Origin: Candidatus Saccharimonadota bacterium | GTDB taxonomy: Bacteria; Patescibacteriota; Saccharimonadia; Saccharimonadales; Saccharimonadaceae | Direction of reading: 5' to 3' | Assembly: GCA_017619315.1 (NCBI GenBank) | Contig: JAFZSN010000003.1 | Location: 1-64,000 of the forward strand | DNA length: 64,000 nt | In this document: positions 7,608 to 19,256 of the stretch, piece after piece | How the letters are laid out: each line of letters opens with the position of its first letter | How positions within the stretch are numbered: the first letter of the stretch is position 1 | Translations under genes and position numbers: made by a program | The notes under the pieces: generated by a model | The model's database searches: none | Told to the model about the DNA's origin: nothing | Seen by the model: only the letters and a program-made list of their open reading frames with translations

Positions 7608-7684
7608 GCACCGGTAGCTCAGTGGATTAGAGCATCTGTCTTCGGAACAGAGGGTCGTGGGTTCGAGTCCCTCCCGGTGTACCA
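7608..7684 (+). tRNA. tRNA-Arg (TCG)
   Basis: Plus-strand cloverleaf: acceptor GCACCGG/CCGGTGT, anticodon arm TCTGT-CTTCGGA-ACAGA (anticodon TCG), T-loop starting TTCGA, discriminator A and encoded CCA at 7682-7684. The Shine-Dalgarno site of the next gene begins only 11 nt after the CCA. Confidence 0.95.
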
Positions 7685-12593: not shown

Positions 12594-15500
12594 ATGAAAA
12601 GATATCAAAGACCAGCTATACTCACAATTCTTGTATTAATAATAGCAGCGTTTTTTGCCTGCAATTTATTTTTCTTCGGTAGAAAAACCGAGGACCCAAA
12701 TGAGCTAATCAACATTTCAGAACTTTCCGAAGATTACATGGAAAACTATTTGAATTCCTTCTCGGAAATTAACCGAAACATAGATGCAGATAGCACTATC
12801 ATTGTCACAAGCACTGAGAGACTCGAAAACACTTATGGTGCTGTCCACGAAATCGAAGCACCAAATAATCAATACTTCCTATATTATAATTCCCCATCCG
12901 AGAAAGAAACAGCAAAAGAAAAAATAAAAAACGAGCCAGGAGTTCTCTACGTAGAAAACGATTCCCTTTTTGAAATCACCGATTATAATTCTTGGGGAAT
13001 CGAGGCGATGGGGCTTGACCAGGCGATAAGCGACTACAGCGTCCAAGGATCAGCTCCAGTCACAGTAGCCATTATCGACACCGGTTGCGATATGGAATTG
13101 TTTAATCAAAGCTATGAAGGTAAAATCCAAGAAACCTACAACTTGTACGACAATAGGATGCACGACGGTCACGGGCACGGCACCCATATCGCAGGTACCA
13201 TAGCGGAAGGCACACCCGACAACGTCAAAATACTCCCCGTCAAGATAGCAAATAGCGCGCAAATGTCAATGACTACCATTGTTACCGCCATAAACTATAT
13301 CACTTACTACCACAAGGCAGACGTCATCAACATGAGTTTTGGTAGAGTAGCCGAAGAAGACGATACCGCCTACTCGCAATATGTAGCCATCCAAGCCGCT
13401 ATGAATAACAACATCATAAGCGTAGCCGCAGCCGGCAATGAATCATCGTCAAACGTTGGCTACCCTGCTTCATTTGACAATACAATCACTGTGTCGGCAG
13501 TCGATCCCAACAAACAGCTTGCAGAATTCTCAAACTTTGGCCCCGACATTACCTTTACCGCTCCGGGTGTCGATATTGTAAGTATTAACGGAACAAAAAG
13601 TGGGACCTCAATGGCAACACCACACGTAGTCAGCGCCATAGCAATTCTAAAAGGCACTAACAAATCCTTATCAAAAGAACAAGCAGTCGAAATCCTAAAG
13701 CATGCCACCATCGATTTAGGCGACCCAGGTCGAGACGATCAATACGGCTACGGCCTAATTGACATGTCTAACTACTTAAATATAAAGTCAATGACCGAAG
13801 ATACTTCATTTGTTGATTTTGAGGTCACCAACACCTCAGCCATTAACGCAAGTTTTGGCAACATTTCAAATCTAATGGATATTGGCGTCCAGCTCATCGA
13901 CGAAGCCAACAACCGCTATGATAGATTCTTGGGCGACCTGGAAGGTTTAGAAATTACCGGCTACGACGCCTTCCTAGCAGGTGACCAAGAAATTACCCTA
14001 ACCTACAAAGGAATTAGTAAAAACGTCATAGTAAACAATGGTTCTTCCGGCGGCAACGATTATGCATATTTTGTCCAAAGGTTAAATAGCGAAGAGGCTA
14101 CCATCCTCGAAATCAGTCACGCCCCCAGAAAGCTTTATATACCAGAATATATAAATGGCTACAAAATAGTAGCGCTCGGCGACAATTCTTCCACCAAAAA
14201 TATCTTCGTCGGTAAAGACAACTCAGAACATATTATCCTCCCAGGCTCCGTAAGAGAAATTAGAAACCGTGCCTTCCAGGGCAAAGAAAACCTAAAATCC
14301 GTCAAAGGCGGCGCAGAATTCGTATCCGTAGGTAAATACGCTTTCGACAAAGCATACAGATTAGCCGAATTCGAACCAACACTTTCCGAAATTGACGATG
14401 CCGCATTCCGCAGTAATCACTCTTTAAAGAGCATCACGCTTTCCGACGACTTGGATTATATACCCAACCACGCCTTTTCGGGATGTACCAGCTTAGAAAG
14501 CATTAATATGCCAAGCAATTTAGAAGATATCGGATCATACGCCTTGTCAAATACCAATATCAAAAACCTAAACATACCAGCCGGCCTCACATCTATAGAC
14601 GAGACCTCCTTTAGAAATATGCCCAACCTAGAAACGATTACCGTTGACCCCGAAAACCCCGTCTATGACAGTAGAGACAACAGCAATGCCCTCATTTTAA
14701 CTGCTGAAAACAAAATCATCCTAGGTTCAGGAAGCACCATCATACCATCCAGCGTTGTCGCGATCAACTCTAACGCCTTTTTAGGAAACCAAAAAATCCA
14801 AGAAATCCATACAAATAATGTTGAAAGAATACAAGAATCAGCATTTGCCGGATGCGTAAACCTAAAGAAGTTTTATATCGAAAACGACAACATAATCGAA
14901 AACTGGTCTGACTTTACTTTCTATAATTCTGCATTAGACTACGAACGGCTACCAAATCTAATGGTCTTTGCCGAAATAGAGTCAAACGAAGTAGACACGT
15001 TAAATATAAAAAACAGCTTATTGAGCCAAGGAGTAAGAGCCTTCATTATAACTACATCATTAAAAATAACTGCATCCGCCGACCAAGAATACAAAGCCTT
15101 CCAAAAAGCCAGCAACATCAGTGTCACAGCCAGCTATTCCGGCTACGCTGATCTCTCGCATACCCTAAGTGAAGAAATCACAAACTATACAGTAGAATAT
15201 CAAAACGGCGACTCGTTCAAAGCCGGTGATACATCGTTCAGGGTAAGCGGCATCACCCAATATGGCGACATTTTCAAGGTATCTATCGCTGTATCAGTTG
15301 CAAAAGCCACACCTACATATGAAGTTCCAACAAATCTCACGGCCAAACTCGGAGAAAAACTATCAGACATCGAGCTAACTGGTGGGTTCGAATGGATGAA
15401 CGGCGACCAGACTATCACCGAGCTCGGAGAACAAACTTTCAAAGCCAGATTCGTCCCAACCGACGCAGACAACTACGAGACTATAGACAATATCGATATC

Positions 15501-17301: not shown

Positions 17302-17328
17302 AAGCCGCGACTGGTTTGCCGCGGACTT
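17302..17328 (+). terminator. Probable terminator hairpin after the protease operon
   Basis: AAGCCGCG paired with CGCGG-a-CTT across an 10-nt loop. The following T-run is poor, so it may be weak or only stabilise the 3' end. Confidence 0.45.
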
Positions 17329-17348: not shown

Positions 17349-17888
17349 TCATCTCACACCCTCCTTAGATTTTTCCATAATTAAACTACAAAACGCCTCA
17401 TCGCTAACTAAAGATTTACATATCGAGAGGCACTCTTCCTCGCTAATAGGTCGAAACTCATCGCCGTAGGAGAGATAGTATCTGTACACTAACCTTACCT
17501 CGAGAACAAAGCTGTGGTCAATATACTCATACCAACAAGAGTTTTCAACCGGCCCCTCGATCTCCACGCGTTTTTCAAGGAAACATTTTATCCAGCCATC
17601 ATCATCGCATTGAGCCCAACCCTCATAACTCTCGGCCACAAGACTTTCCTTATTCTTATAGTCAAGGTTGCAAGACACGGTCTCAGCATAATCGGCAAGA
17701 TAAATCGTCACCTCATCCTCATTAAAGTCCTCGCAGCTAATCCTTAACAAAAAATAAGAATCATCATCAAGCTTCTCCTTTCCTGCTGCTATTTTCTTTC
17801 GGCATTCCATCAACTCCGAAAAGAATTCTTCAATCTCCTTACCAGCCGCATACTTATTCCTAACTGTCACTTCTGTCATAATTCCCAT
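17349..17888 (-). CDS. Hypothetical acidic small protein of the leader-RNA island
   Basis: 179 residues from the chosen ATG (MGIMTEVTVRNKY). The frame is open 30 codons further, but AAAGGAG lies 7 nt before this ATG, and the upstream part overlaps a conserved RNA leader, so the shorter start is preferred. The protein is soluble, acidic and Tyr/Cys-rich in the second half; SYFLLRISCEDFNEDEVTIYL and SFVLEVRLVYRYYLSYGDEF suggest beta strands. I do not recognise a family. Its leader (17940-18023) matches that of the gene at 18761 although the proteins are unrelated by eye. Confidence 0.6.
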   Translation of the reverse strand: MGIMTEVTVRNKYAAGKEIEEFFSELMECRKKIAAGKEKLDDDSYFLLRISCEDFNEDEVTIYLADYAETVSCNLDYKNKESLVAESYEGWAQCDDDGWIKCFLEKRVEIEGPVENSCWYEYIDHSFVLEVRLVYRYYLSYGDEFRPISEEECLSICKSLVSDEAFCSLIMEKSKEGVR

Positions 17889-17939
17889 ATCATTCTCCTT
17901 TACAATAATCTTCCTTTTAATTTGATGTCGCGTCGAAAA

Positions 17940-18023
17940 TAGCAGAGGCTGCGGACGTTTTAAGAGGACGCGCTCCAAAACGTTTTAATGCAAAGTTCTC
18001 TGCTAGGGCTCATCACCCAATAT
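17940..18023 (-). ncRNA. Conserved structured leader RNA, copy A
   Basis: Lies 52 nt upstream of the 179-aa gene. Compared with copy B it keeps three blocks: ATATTGGGTGATGAGCCC, CTTTGCATTAAA and CCGCAGCCT. The last two bracket a 29-nt hairpin (17955-17983) of the same length in both copies; its outer pairs here are ACGTTTT/AAAACGT. The first block can form GGGT-GATGA-GCCC. In copy A, TAGCAGA (17999-18005) can also pair with TCTGCTA (17940-17946). Probably a cis-regulatory element or riboswitch-like RNA; no known class is recognised. Confidence 0.65.
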
Positions 18024-18043
18024 TCAGTTAAAGCCTAGCCTAC

Positions 18044-18286
18044 CTAGAAGAAATCAAAGTTGTCGCCATCATCGTCACAGTAGACTCCATTCCCCACGTG
18101 GTTCATTTTAAACGGCGAACCGCAACAATCACCACGGTCATCGCGAGGTCCGGATTCGTCACAACCGCTGTGTTCCGGATGAAAAACAACAATGAGCTTC
18201 TTTTTCTTTTTCGGTTTATTATTGTCCATACTTTCTCTCCTTTTCGTACTCCTATCAACTCTACAAATAGTATTCTCCTTAATCAT
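18044..18286 (-). CDS. Small Cys/Asp-rich hypothetical protein
   Basis: 80 residues from ATG at 18286, which has AGAAGGAGG 5 nt upstream, or 61 residues from ATG at 18229, which has AAAGGAG; the two starts are in frame and both have good ribosome sites. From the inner start: a lysine run (KPKKKKK), a beta-like stretch LIVVFHPEH, then four cysteines (SGC, GDCCG, GVYCDDD) and an acidic Phe-rich tail (DNFDFF). It may bind metal. Leader A begins 20 bp after its stop, so it could share a transcript with the 179-aa gene. No family recognised. Confidence 0.5.
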   Translation of the reverse strand: MIKENTICRVDRSTKRRESMDNNKPKKKKKLIVVFHPEHSGCDESGPRDDRGDCCGSPFKMNHVGNGVYCDDDGDNFDFF

Positions 18287-18482
18287 ATTTCCTCCTTCTA
18301 AAACCAAAAACAGCTTCGCATTACATTGCGCATTCTTAACTTTTTTAAAGATCCATACTTTAACCCCCAAAGCATCTACCCAATTTATAATTATAACACA
18401 CAGACCATTACAAGTCAATAGTAATACAATAATACTAAACATAAACTATTTTAGCAGATTGGGACAAAATCCAAAAACCCTA

Positions 18483-18511
18483 TTGACACAAATATAACAC
18501 AATGGTATAAT
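18483..18511 (+). promoter_or_regulatory. Consensus promoter of the leader-B transcript
   Basis: TTGACA, exactly 17 bp, TATAAT. Transcription would begin near 18518, giving a 5' UTR of about 240 nt before the ATG at 18761. The first part of that UTR holds an A/T hairpin (TATCAAA/TTTGATA) and a nested hairpin ATAAC-agt-GTTAT near 18562. Confidence 0.85.
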
Positions 18512-18633
18512 ATCAAAGTTTGATATTATTATTAAAAGCATCTTAAAAACTGGAATAACAGTGTTATGAGAATGTTTTTAATATCTTTCAAATATCCCCA
18601 AAAATAAGTGGGAGCCCCTAGCGGGTCTAAGAC

Positions 18634-18712
18634 ATATTGGGTGATGAGCCCCTCTGAATGAGCTTTGCATTAAAGTGTTTCAGGGGTACGTCCCCCTGTT
18701 CACCCGCAGCCT
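18634..18712 (+). ncRNA. Conserved structured leader RNA, copy B
   Basis: Second copy of the leader described at 17940, in opposite orientation, 49 nt before the 137-aa gene. The three conserved blocks are identical to copy A with one 1-nt length difference. The 29-nt hairpin (18675-18703) pairs through GTG/CAC and CAGGGG/CCCCTG, different bases from copy A but the same position and length, which is the pattern of compensatory change. A related GAGCCCCTAGCGGG string lies just upstream at 18612. Confidence 0.7.
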
Positions 18713-18760
18713 TCACCGTATCTTGACGAACATGTAAATTCACAAAAAAGGAGAGAAAGA

Positions 18761-19174
18761 ATGAGATATAAAATAATTTCAGACTATTATGACGGCAGGG
18801 ACTCAGACCATGAATTTAAGGGCTTCGTGAGAGCTGAGGACCTGAATGCATTCGTAGTTTACCTCAAAGCATGTGGGTTCGTCGGAAGGTTCAAAAAGAA
18901 TAAAGGATGTTATTGTCGGGAGTTGGATCCTGGTTGGCTCGACCATCATGGAAACCACATCCATACGATAAAAATCATCCCATACAAAGAACCGAAGACA
19001 TTAACCCCGAACGACTGGAATAATATGATCGAGTCGTTCAACGAGTCAAACTACTACGAGCAAATCAGTCCAGGATACTACAGATGGAAAGACATTGAAT
19101 CAGAGGACGACGAAGAAGATATAGAAGAATATTTAAGAAAGGAGCTTGGGCAATCACTAATAGACTATATTTGA
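18761..19174 (+). CDS. Hypothetical protein downstream of leader B
   Basis: 137 residues, start supported by AAAGGAG 6-7 nt upstream. Soluble, Tyr/Asp/His-rich: YYDGRDSDHEFKGFVRAEDL, a cysteine pair (GCYC, about 47-50), DHHGNHIHTIKIIPYKEP, then an acidic helical tail (SEDDEEDIEEYLRKEL). The HxH-rich stretch could bind metal. No known family is recognised. It belongs to the transcript from the promoter at 18483 and is followed by a 22-codon frame and a terminator. Confidence 0.65.
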   Translation: MRYKIISDYYDGRDSDHEFKGFVRAEDLNAFVVYLKACGFVGRFKKNKGCYCRELDPGWLDHHGNHIHTIKIIPYKEPKTLTPNDWNNMIESFNESNYYEQISPGYYRWKDIESEDDEEDIEEYLRKELGQSLIDYI

Positions 19175-19187
19175 AAGGAGATAAAAA

Positions 19188-19256
19188 ATGTATAATATTC
19201 ACTGTTATCCAGTAACCAAAAGGGTCCTGGCTAGCCAGGGTCCCTTTTTGTTGTAA
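19188..19256 (+). CDS. 22-residue frame overlapping a terminator
   Basis: GAAAGGAG lies 7 nt before an ATG that opens 22 codons, starting MYNIHCYPVTKRV and ending after the stem-loop at 19221-19250. The strong ribosome site argues that it is translated, but translating through the hairpin would affect termination, so this may be a regulatory mini-gene or a decayed gene start. No family can be assigned. Confidence 0.35.
   Translation: MYNIHCYPVTKRVLASQGPFLL
19221..19250 (+). terminator. Strong intrinsic terminator
   Basis: GGG-T-CCTGGCTAGCCAGG-GT-CCC stem followed by TTTTT, ending the leader-B transcript. Confidence 0.85.

What the first reader, a model, noticed from the sequence alone, without database searches (positions are those of the whole stretch)
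17940..18712. A duplicated, covarying leader RNA heads two unrelated small genes
Two 78-79-nt segments in opposite orientation share three invariant blocks (18, 12 and 9 nt) while the DNA between is different. Between blocks two and three both have a hairpin of exactly 29 nt whose paired bases differ but still pair: ACG/CGT in one, GTG/CAC in the other, with different inner helices. Each lies about 50 nt before a ribosome site. Conserved single-stranded blocks plus covarying stems are what a riboswitch or other cis-regulatory RNA looks like, and I do not recognise a known class. The controlled proteins (179 and 137 aa) are not alike, which argues against simple gene duplication.
Basis: partly seen in the sequence, partly recalled or inferred. 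Interest (0 to 1): 0.88.

Follow-up and report, generated by a model that had tools for sequence, protein, structure and literature searches.

The report
Pseudoknotted RNA between Saccharibacteria accessory genes
A roughly 95-base element, present twice in this genome and twelve more times in nine related Saccharibacteria, shows matched base changes that preserve a predicted knotted RNA fold beside small accessory genes, where it likely acts as a built-in switch; it matched no family in the Rfam library.

Summary
The two segments (A, minus strand, 17929-18023; B, plus strand, 18634-18728; 95 nt each) belong to an RNA family with no Rfam match. I kept 14 copies in 10 Saccharibacteria genomes of two genera of one family; the searches outside that family gave only weak hits, which I rejected. 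The '18-nt block' is mostly a small hairpin (P0, GAUGA loop). The P3 arm is nearly constant in length, so the RNA probably folds back compactly.
It is not simply a 5' leader. Eleven of 14 copies start 12-60 nt after a stop codon, 7 run into a nearby terminator-like hairpin, and 7 precede a gene (3 of them past that hairpin). All 14 are co-oriented with the adjacent cistron. Best guess: a cis-acting tertiary-folded switch between neighbouring cistrons. A ribozyme or processing element, or a put-like antiterminator, remains open. Ligand and function are untested.

The parts
17929..18023 (-). RNA copy A, whole element (P0, P1, P2, P3, pseudoknot tail), 95 nt
18006..18018 (-). A: P0 hairpin GGGU-GAUGA-GCCC
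   Evidence: GGGU/GCCC here, GGAC/GUCC in three related copies
17998..18005 (-). A: P1 5' strand (pairs with 17940-17947)
   Evidence: all 7 counted P1 pairs have double changes; coordinates checked
17940..17947 (-). A: P1 3' strand
17990..17993 (-). A: P2 5' strand UUGC (pairs with 17949-17952 GCAG); followed by conserved AUURAA internal loop
17955..17983 (-). A: P3 hairpin, 29 nt, apical loop CGCGUC at 17967-17972
17929..17934 (-). A: pseudoknot tail GACGCG, complementary to the P3 loop CGCGUC
18634..18728 (+). RNA copy B, whole element, 95 nt
18639..18651 (+). B: P0 hairpin GGGU-GAUGA-GCCC
18655..18660 (+). B: P1 5' strand UGAAUG (U bulged), pairs with 18711-18715 CUUCA
18665..18668 (+). 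B: P2 5' strand UUGC (pairs with 18706-18709 GCAG)
18675..18703 (+). B: P3 hairpin, 29 nt, loop CGUC at 18689-18692
18725..18728 (+). B: pseudoknot tail GACG
18390..18418 (-). predicted promoter for the A transcript (TTGACT-17-TATAAT, TG before -10)
   Evidence: 11 of 12 consensus positions
18483..18511 (+). predicted promoter for the B transcript (TTGACA-17-TATAAT, TG before -10)
   Evidence: 12 of 12 consensus positions
18044..18286 (-). 80-aa ORF (62 aa from the inner ATG at 18232) upstream of A, same strand
   Evidence: Pfam only a weak sub-cutoff match
17349..17888 (-). 179-aa gene after A; one relative found (P0003, 64%)
18761..19174 (+). 137-aa gene after B; no relative found
17305..17324 (-). 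terminator-like site after the 179-aa gene
19222..19243 (+). terminator-like site after the 137-aa gene

Best explanation
The two segments are copies of an RNA family absent from Rfam whose matched base changes preserve predicted stems and a predicted loop-to-tail pseudoknot, and it likely works in cis as a folded switch between neighbouring accessory genes. Shown by the calls: the family (14 copies, 10 genomes), the covarying stems, the loop-tail complementarity in all copies, the co-orientation with the adjacent cistron, and the position after stop codons and before genes or terminator-like hairpins. Inferred: P3 folds back at the conserved AUURAA/CC internal loop so that its apical loop pairs with the tail next to P1, giving a compact fold. 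Inferred: docking of the tail, perhaps governed by a ligand or a protein reading the conserved unpaired bases, changes how readily RNA polymerase (copies with a terminator) or the ribosome (copies about 40 nt before a start codon) goes on into what follows.
For: Covariation on 14 copies: 12 of 18 pairs with double changes, covariation score 0.405 against 0.173 shuffled, 0 of 500 shuffles as high; slid controls pair 33-47% of cells against 90.4%. Pseudoknot: at least 4 Watson-Crick loop-tail pairs in 14 of 14, all four loop types matched by their own tails; 0 of 5000 tail shuffles and 388 of 100,000 loop-tail permutations among 10 representatives reach the score. The insert between the P2 strands is 33-37 nt and the P1-to-tail linker 3-9 nt in all 14 copies. 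Three related loci have [Csx3-like gene]-RNA-terminator-like hairpin-RBS-[radical SAM gene]; in the one scanned, the only strong promoter lies upstream of the Csx3-like gene. Four copies have a start codon 37-48 nt after the model end. In A's predicted minimum-energy fold P0 opens and pairs with the first codons of the 179-aa gene, and in G193 the first four bases of the modelled segment pair with the RBS: possible, copy-specific platforms. Window promoters.
Against: No competing pairing is shared by the 7 copies with a gene: those in A, G193 and G574 differ from each other, B, G101b and G438 have almost none, and G582 pairs only the bases before P0 and at the element's end. RBS windows are half open in prediction (mean unpaired 0.40-0.64). 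Four copies end at a terminator-like hairpin with no promoterless gene behind it, and in G168 the next genes have promoter-like sites of their own. In the scan of L055 the number of terminator-like sites (2) equals the shuffled mean (2.0). Neighbouring genes share no theme that points to one ligand. Copy B's minimum-energy fold (-26.0 kcal/mol) is not the consensus fold (-18.6 when forced, pseudoknot not counted). Outer P3 pairs hold in only 64% of cells, and the number of pair types does not exceed shuffles (19 against 19.4). Some wrong loop-tail pairings score higher than the true ones (maximum 147 against 130). The family is small, and four of the 14 copies look orthologous.
Confidence: 0.4

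Rival explanations
1. An intercistronic processing or self-cleaving element: the fold (a new ribozyme, or a site for a specific RNase or RNA-binding protein) cuts or protects the message between cistrons, so its downstream partner does not matter.
For: 11 of 14 copies start 12-60 nt after a stop codon whatever follows, with different genes on both sides; conserved unpaired bases cluster in one internal loop and one apical loop; the P1-P3 domain stands alone without P0 in 3 copies.
Against: No Rfam ribozyme matches even at E 10 in the four stretches tested; two copies (B, G101b) have no gene just before them; no cleavage data.
Confidence: 0.22
2. A put-like processive antiterminator: the RNA stays on RNA polymerase and lets it pass terminators or untranslated stretches of cargo operons, without a ligand.
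For: Two adjacent hairpins, about 85-95 nt; nearby terminator-like hairpin downstream in 7 of 14; in three loci a gene behind that hairpin with no room for a promoter between. HK022 put RNAs are about 70 nt, two stem-loops, and pass intrinsic terminators without dedicated proteins (PMC9378689, passages seen).
Against: Window copies have no terminator-like site on their strand between RNA and gene; in G168 readthrough would enter a SpoU gene that has its own promoter-like site; P0 is absent from 3 copies; no comparison of sequence with put was made.
Confidence: 0.15
3. A metabolite riboswitch in the ordinary sense, controlling the gene after it.
For: Conserved unpaired bases plus covarying stems and a pseudoknot; 7 of 14 copies precede a gene with an RBS.
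Against: The other 7 have no such gene close by; the following genes share no known function; no shared expression platform.
Confidence: 0.12
4. A small RNA excised from 3' UTRs, acting in trans through exposed bases.
For: Gene-RNA-terminator order in G168 (both copies), G565 and G560.
Against: The conserved loop has a complementary tail of its own in every copy; other copies sit directly before genes.
Confidence: 0.06
5. A mobile DNA repeat or recombination site without RNA function.
For: Patchy presence (5 of 175 genomes of the genus); surroundings variable where read; a breakpoint exactly at the element's 5' edge in L063 and clean loss of P0 in G560.
Against: Covariation and a covarying pseudoknot; all 14 co-oriented with the adjacent cistron; no recombinase family among the ORFs scanned and no direct repeats bounding the window stretch. 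Wobble pairs lean to the sense strand (23 G-U against 2 A-C in P0-P2), but 21 of the 23 come from two fixed columns, so this counts for little.
Confidence: 0.05

Closest known systems
HK022 put RNA (processive antiterminator)
   Same: Two neighbouring stem-loops of similar total size in accessory (phage) transcripts, linked to terminators (PMC9378689, passages seen)
   Different: Here there is a loop-to-tail pseudoknot and a strongly conserved internal loop; copies also directly precede genes with no terminator; sequence relation not tested
THF-I riboswitch
   Same: A P3 apical loop docks by long-range pseudoknot onto an internal-loop strand (L3 with J2/1; PMC9881143, passage seen)
   Different: THF-I is a three-way junction with the partner strand inside the aptamer; here there is a single arm and the partner lies outside P1; no Rfam match
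preQ1-III and guanidine-IV riboswitches
   Same: Regulation through docking of a downstream strand or terminator loop (PMC10907184, passages seen)
   Different: Here the tail carries neither the RBS nor a terminator loop
Integron attC sites (recalled, no call)
   Same: Structured element on the 3' side of small orphan genes, same orientation as the genes
   Different: Conserved ends of attC are outermost; here the outermost stem P1 is the variable, covarying one; no integrase family among the proteins scanned

Membership tests
Riboswitch (any class) | Conserved unpaired core within covarying helices | tested here: met
Riboswitch (any class) | Lies in the 5' UTR of the gene it controls | tested here: inconclusive
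   7 of 14 copies precede a gene with an RBS (4 directly, 3 past a terminator-like hairpin); 7 do not; 11 of 14 follow a stop codon closely
Riboswitch (any class) | Expression platform with an alternative structure | tested here: inconclusive
   terminator-like hairpins next to 7 copies; competing pairings predicted only singly (A with its start-codon region, G193 with its RBS, G574), none shared
Riboswitch (any class) | Binds a small ligand | not testable with these tools
   needs in-line probing
Any of 4227 Rfam families (incl. THF, preQ1 and known ribozymes) | Reaches the family's gathering score | tested here: not met
   window and L020-L023, no hit on the element; at E up to 10 only scattered low-scoring hits in four stretches. 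The five second-genus copies were tested only through G438
HK022 put-like antiterminator | RNA upstream of terminators that guard promoterless genes | tested here: inconclusive
   layout seen in 3 related loci, one of them scanned; not in the window, G193, G101b or G168
HK022 put-like antiterminator | Suppresses termination in cis without a dedicated protein | not testable with these tools
   needs in vitro transcription
Integron cassette attC | Neighbouring integron integrase and conserved outer core sites | tested here: not met
   outer stem variable; no integrase family among the island proteins scanned, though not every ORF was scanned; attC features recalled
Self-cleaving ribozyme | Site-specific self-cleavage | not testable with these tools
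   no Rfam ribozyme match; activity untested

The most novel reading that the evidence does not exclude
The RNA is the sensor of a new riboswitch class that reads a nucleotide second messenger, for example a cyclic oligoadenylate, so that exchangeable cargo operons of Saccharibacteria are switched by anti-phage signalling. Seven of the 14 copies follow genes with weak similarity to ring nucleases: three STIV B116-like (best E 0.015, below the Pfam cut-off; one of the three has no hit of its own) and four Csx3-like by their look (the one scanned matched PADLOC Csx3 at 6.9e-6; Pfam Csx3 only 0.082). That these families are ring nucleases is recalled.
Probability: 0.05. Interest if true: 0.92.

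Novelty: new variant of a known kind. Interest (0 to 1): 0.62.

Why it matters
My paper searches showed no native regulatory RNA described for Saccharibacteria or other Patescibacteria, although for I saw only the top of long lists; a 2024 perspective names riboswitches only as promising tools for these bacteria (PMC11665869, passages seen). A pseudoknotted RNA family with clear covariation, kept while the genes around it differ, would give a handle on how these ultrasmall symbionts control imported genes. At about 95 nt it is small enough for probing, ligand screens or crystallography straight from sequence.

Tried and rejected
Kissing between the P0 loop (GAUGA) and the P3 loop (UCGUC): rejected, because the three copies without P0 keep the P3 loop and the second genus changes it without changing GAUGA; the tail explains the loop instead.

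Distant copies: the weak model hits were rejected. L031, L032, L036 and L037 align as tRNA-Val-like 5' ends (tRNA identity recalled from the sequence). L038 lies antisense inside a long ORF. L017 (E 0.88) looked like coding sequence. For L024-L027, L033-L035 and L039-L050 I saw alignments only for the best of them; the rest were judged by a motif script, in which only L044 had the core letters, with no P1 that I could see. L196-L199 match only parts. Of 19 genome contigs pattern hits, 7 are Saccharibacteria with the element (5 already known) and the other 12 were not supported by the model (best 12.9 bits).

Viral collections: two strict pattern scans and one protein scan found nothing.

The 179-aa protein: its only relative, P0003, was not found in the 174 other genus genomes or in viral contigs, so whether it carries the RNA is unknown. 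Structure models gave no lead (137 aa: pLDDT 47; 179 aa: pLDDT 78, no Foldseek match at E 0.001 or better).

16S-rRNA or tRNA mimicry was considered only in thought and not tested.

Full report
Observation. The two segments are as described. A model built from them alone (R1) found further strong matches in four other genomes of the same genus out of 175, so this is a family and not a coincidence. Rebuilt models (R2, R3) and a pattern scan of named genomes brought the total to 14 copies in 10 genomes: two in the window; two each in G168 (JAFWMK010000015, sheep jejunum), G101 (DFGN01000014) and G201 (CAMYWN010000011); one in G193 (CAMNPZ010000026); and one each in five genomes of a second genus of the same family: G574 (JAFYAV010000002, sheep rumen), G438 (JAIKZA010000057), G582 (CAMZJD010000006), G565 and G560. 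Hit counts: genus 9 of 175 genomes at E 0.1, of which 5 are kept; order 26 of 393 at E 0.1, 4 kept; family 12 of 395 at E 0.01, 10 kept; phylum 5 of 379 at E 0.01, 1 kept, the own genome. The samples overlap, and searches over 40 genomes use stricter filters. The rejected hits are told under Tried and rejected.

Anatomy. From 5' to 3': P0, a 4-bp hairpin with a GAUGA loop (GGGU/GCCC in eight copies, GGAC/GUCC in three, absent in three); P1, about 8 bp and freely covarying; P2 (UYGC/GCRG in most); an asymmetric internal loop AUURAA/CC in most copies; P3, whose paired bases and inner helix vary; and a tail 3-9 nt after P1. On the 14-row alignment 12 of 18 pairs show changes on both sides, 36 cells against 11.8 expected from shuffles, and 0 of 500 shuffles reach the covariation score; the number of pair types does not exceed shuffles. 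The shuffle control ignores relatedness, but sliding the partners by 1-3 columns drops pairing from 90.4% to 33-47%. P3 is paired in only 64% of cells in the fixed columns; by eye its register slips by one base between copies.

Pseudoknot. The apical loop of P3 carries CGUC, UGUC, UGCC or CGCC, and the tail carries the exact complement GACG, GACA, GGCA or GGCG in 14 of 14 copies; window A extends this to CGCGUC/GACGCG. Among 10 representatives the summed score (130) is reached by 388 of 100,000 permutations of tails (mean 107.7, maximum 147) and by 0 of 5000 tail shuffles (mean 74.9, maximum 104). I saw the complementarity by eye before testing, and I chose the loop windows by hand. The insert between the P2 strands (33-37 nt) and the linker (3-9 nt) hardly vary. 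A straight helix of about 20 pairs could not be spanned by so short a linker, so the arm must bend back at the AUURAA/CC loop; this is inference.

Context. All 14 copies lie on the same strand as the adjacent cistron, although several copies look orthologous. Eleven start 12-60 nt after a stop codon; one (G582) is entered by a reading frame whose end was lost at the element's 5' edge; B and G101b have no gene just before them. Downstream: four copies have a start codon 37-48 nt after the model's end with no terminator-like hairpin seen between (A 48, B 39, G193 44, G101b 37); three (G574, G438, G582) have a terminator-like hairpin and then a radical SAM gene at 71-74 nt; four (G168a, G168b, G565, G560) have such a hairpin and no such gene; three (G101a, G201a, G201b) are followed by other sequence with further hairpins. 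The scan tool listed the terminators of G168 (6 sites against 1.9 in shuffles) and G438 (2 against 2.0); the others were read by eye. Upstream genes include three copies of an STIV B116-like gene (Pfam E 0.015 for one and 0.12 for another, none for the third; 81% and 71% identical to the first) and four Csx3-like genes (PADLOC E 6.9e-6 for the one scanned). Most of the other flanking proteins scanned have no family.

Genome position. In G193, G168 and G101 the element sits between a 16S rRNA end and SpoU/MazG/tRNA genes, beside a TrmB-like regulator (which of these genes lie on each contig varies); in G201 and the second genus a similar regulator gene is nearby by eye. In the window the element sits between tRNA-Arg (7608-7684) and a pilin-like gene (19290). 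Of 8 relatives whose stretches I fetched, these two lie within about 0.3 kb in 3 (G003, G004, G015; the G004 stretch holds a run of N), 3.8-5.5 kb apart in 3 (G001, G018, G006), and in 2 the tRNA side did not match (G010, G016); none of the 80-, 137- or 179-aa proteins matched there. So 7.7-19.27 kb is a variable stretch; no direct repeat of the tRNA end was seen at its other side.

How it most likely works. Conserved unpaired bases, a compact pseudoknotted fold, a tail near a terminator-like hairpin or some 40 nt before a start codon, and genes behind a terminator with no room for a promoter in three loci together favour a cis-acting switch. Against this, the 7 copies with a gene show no shared competing helix: in the predicted fold of A, P0 opens to pair with the first codons of the gene; in G193 four bases before P0 pair with the RBS; G574 opens P0 differently; the other four show almost none or pair only bases outside P0-P3. 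RBS windows are half open (0.40-0.64), and half the copies have no gene to control. I therefore give this 0.4 and keep processing/ribozyme (0.22) and put-like antitermination (0.15) open.

Known kinds. Rfam: no gathering-level match on the element in the window or in L020-L023, and only scattered low-scoring hits up to E 10 in four tested stretches. Topologically it recalls loop docking in THF-I (PMC9881143, passages) and, in size and terminator linkage, HK022 put (PMC9378689, passages); membership is not claimed in either. Paper searches on Saccharibacteria or Patescibacteria with structured RNA, riboswitch, pseudoknot or antitermination showed no description; for 73, 74 and 118 I saw 15 of 1,464, 15 of 96 and 6 of 192 listed papers, and the library lacks most subscription journals.

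Noticed in passing
L020:3715 (+); L022:6507 (-); L023:12147, 10995, 10460, 7976, 7254 (-): A second recurring structured element in the same islands: an H-type pseudoknot, GGCAG-loop-CTGCC-TCATCAAAA-tail, in which loop and tail covary (GAGAG/CTCTC, GCGAG/CTCGC, GGG/CCC); seven places found by a motif script, none in the window.
   Followed up: partly
L020:3102, L055:4202, L192:1476 (+); L023:12315, L052:2400, L193:1594 (-): A hairpin CCCAGGTAAAAGCTGGG (CTCAG/CTGAG in L193) stands just before P0/P1 in 6 of the 14 copies; its stem changes on both sides in L193.
   Followed up: partly
L023:5775-11934: A run of orphan genes that share the same 5' leader, RBS and first codons (MANS...) but mostly differ afterwards, as if coding regions were swapped behind a fixed start.
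   Followed up: no
L022:7239-7594 and 14129-14479; L023:8440-8740 and 12980-13280: A long structured leader with its own consensus-like promoter heads several operons of these islands, repeated within and between genomes.
   Followed up: no
window:7685-19272: Variable stretch between tRNA-Arg and a pilin-like gene (within 0.3 kb of each other in 3 of 8 relatives); it carries an NMT1-like ABC transporter set, an Exo_endo_phos protein and a subtilase with BspA repeats and a C-terminal dockerin domain (Pfam E 4.1e-6).
   Followed up: partly
L063:3458-3850: The Csx3-like gene has lost its end at the 5' edge of the RNA and its reading frame runs through the element.
   Followed up: no
L197:1501-1569 (-), L199:1501-1545 (-): Two genomes of other families show AUAUUG followed by a P0-like hairpin with the GAUGA loop and a compensated stem (GAGU/GCUC, GAGC/GCUC), without P1-P3; at E 0.003-0.008 over 379 genomes this may be chance.
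   Followed up: no
window:15251-15264: A 14-nt exact match to the 5' part of the element lies inside the subtilase gene (model score 12.0, E 0.76); probably chance.
   Followed up: yes
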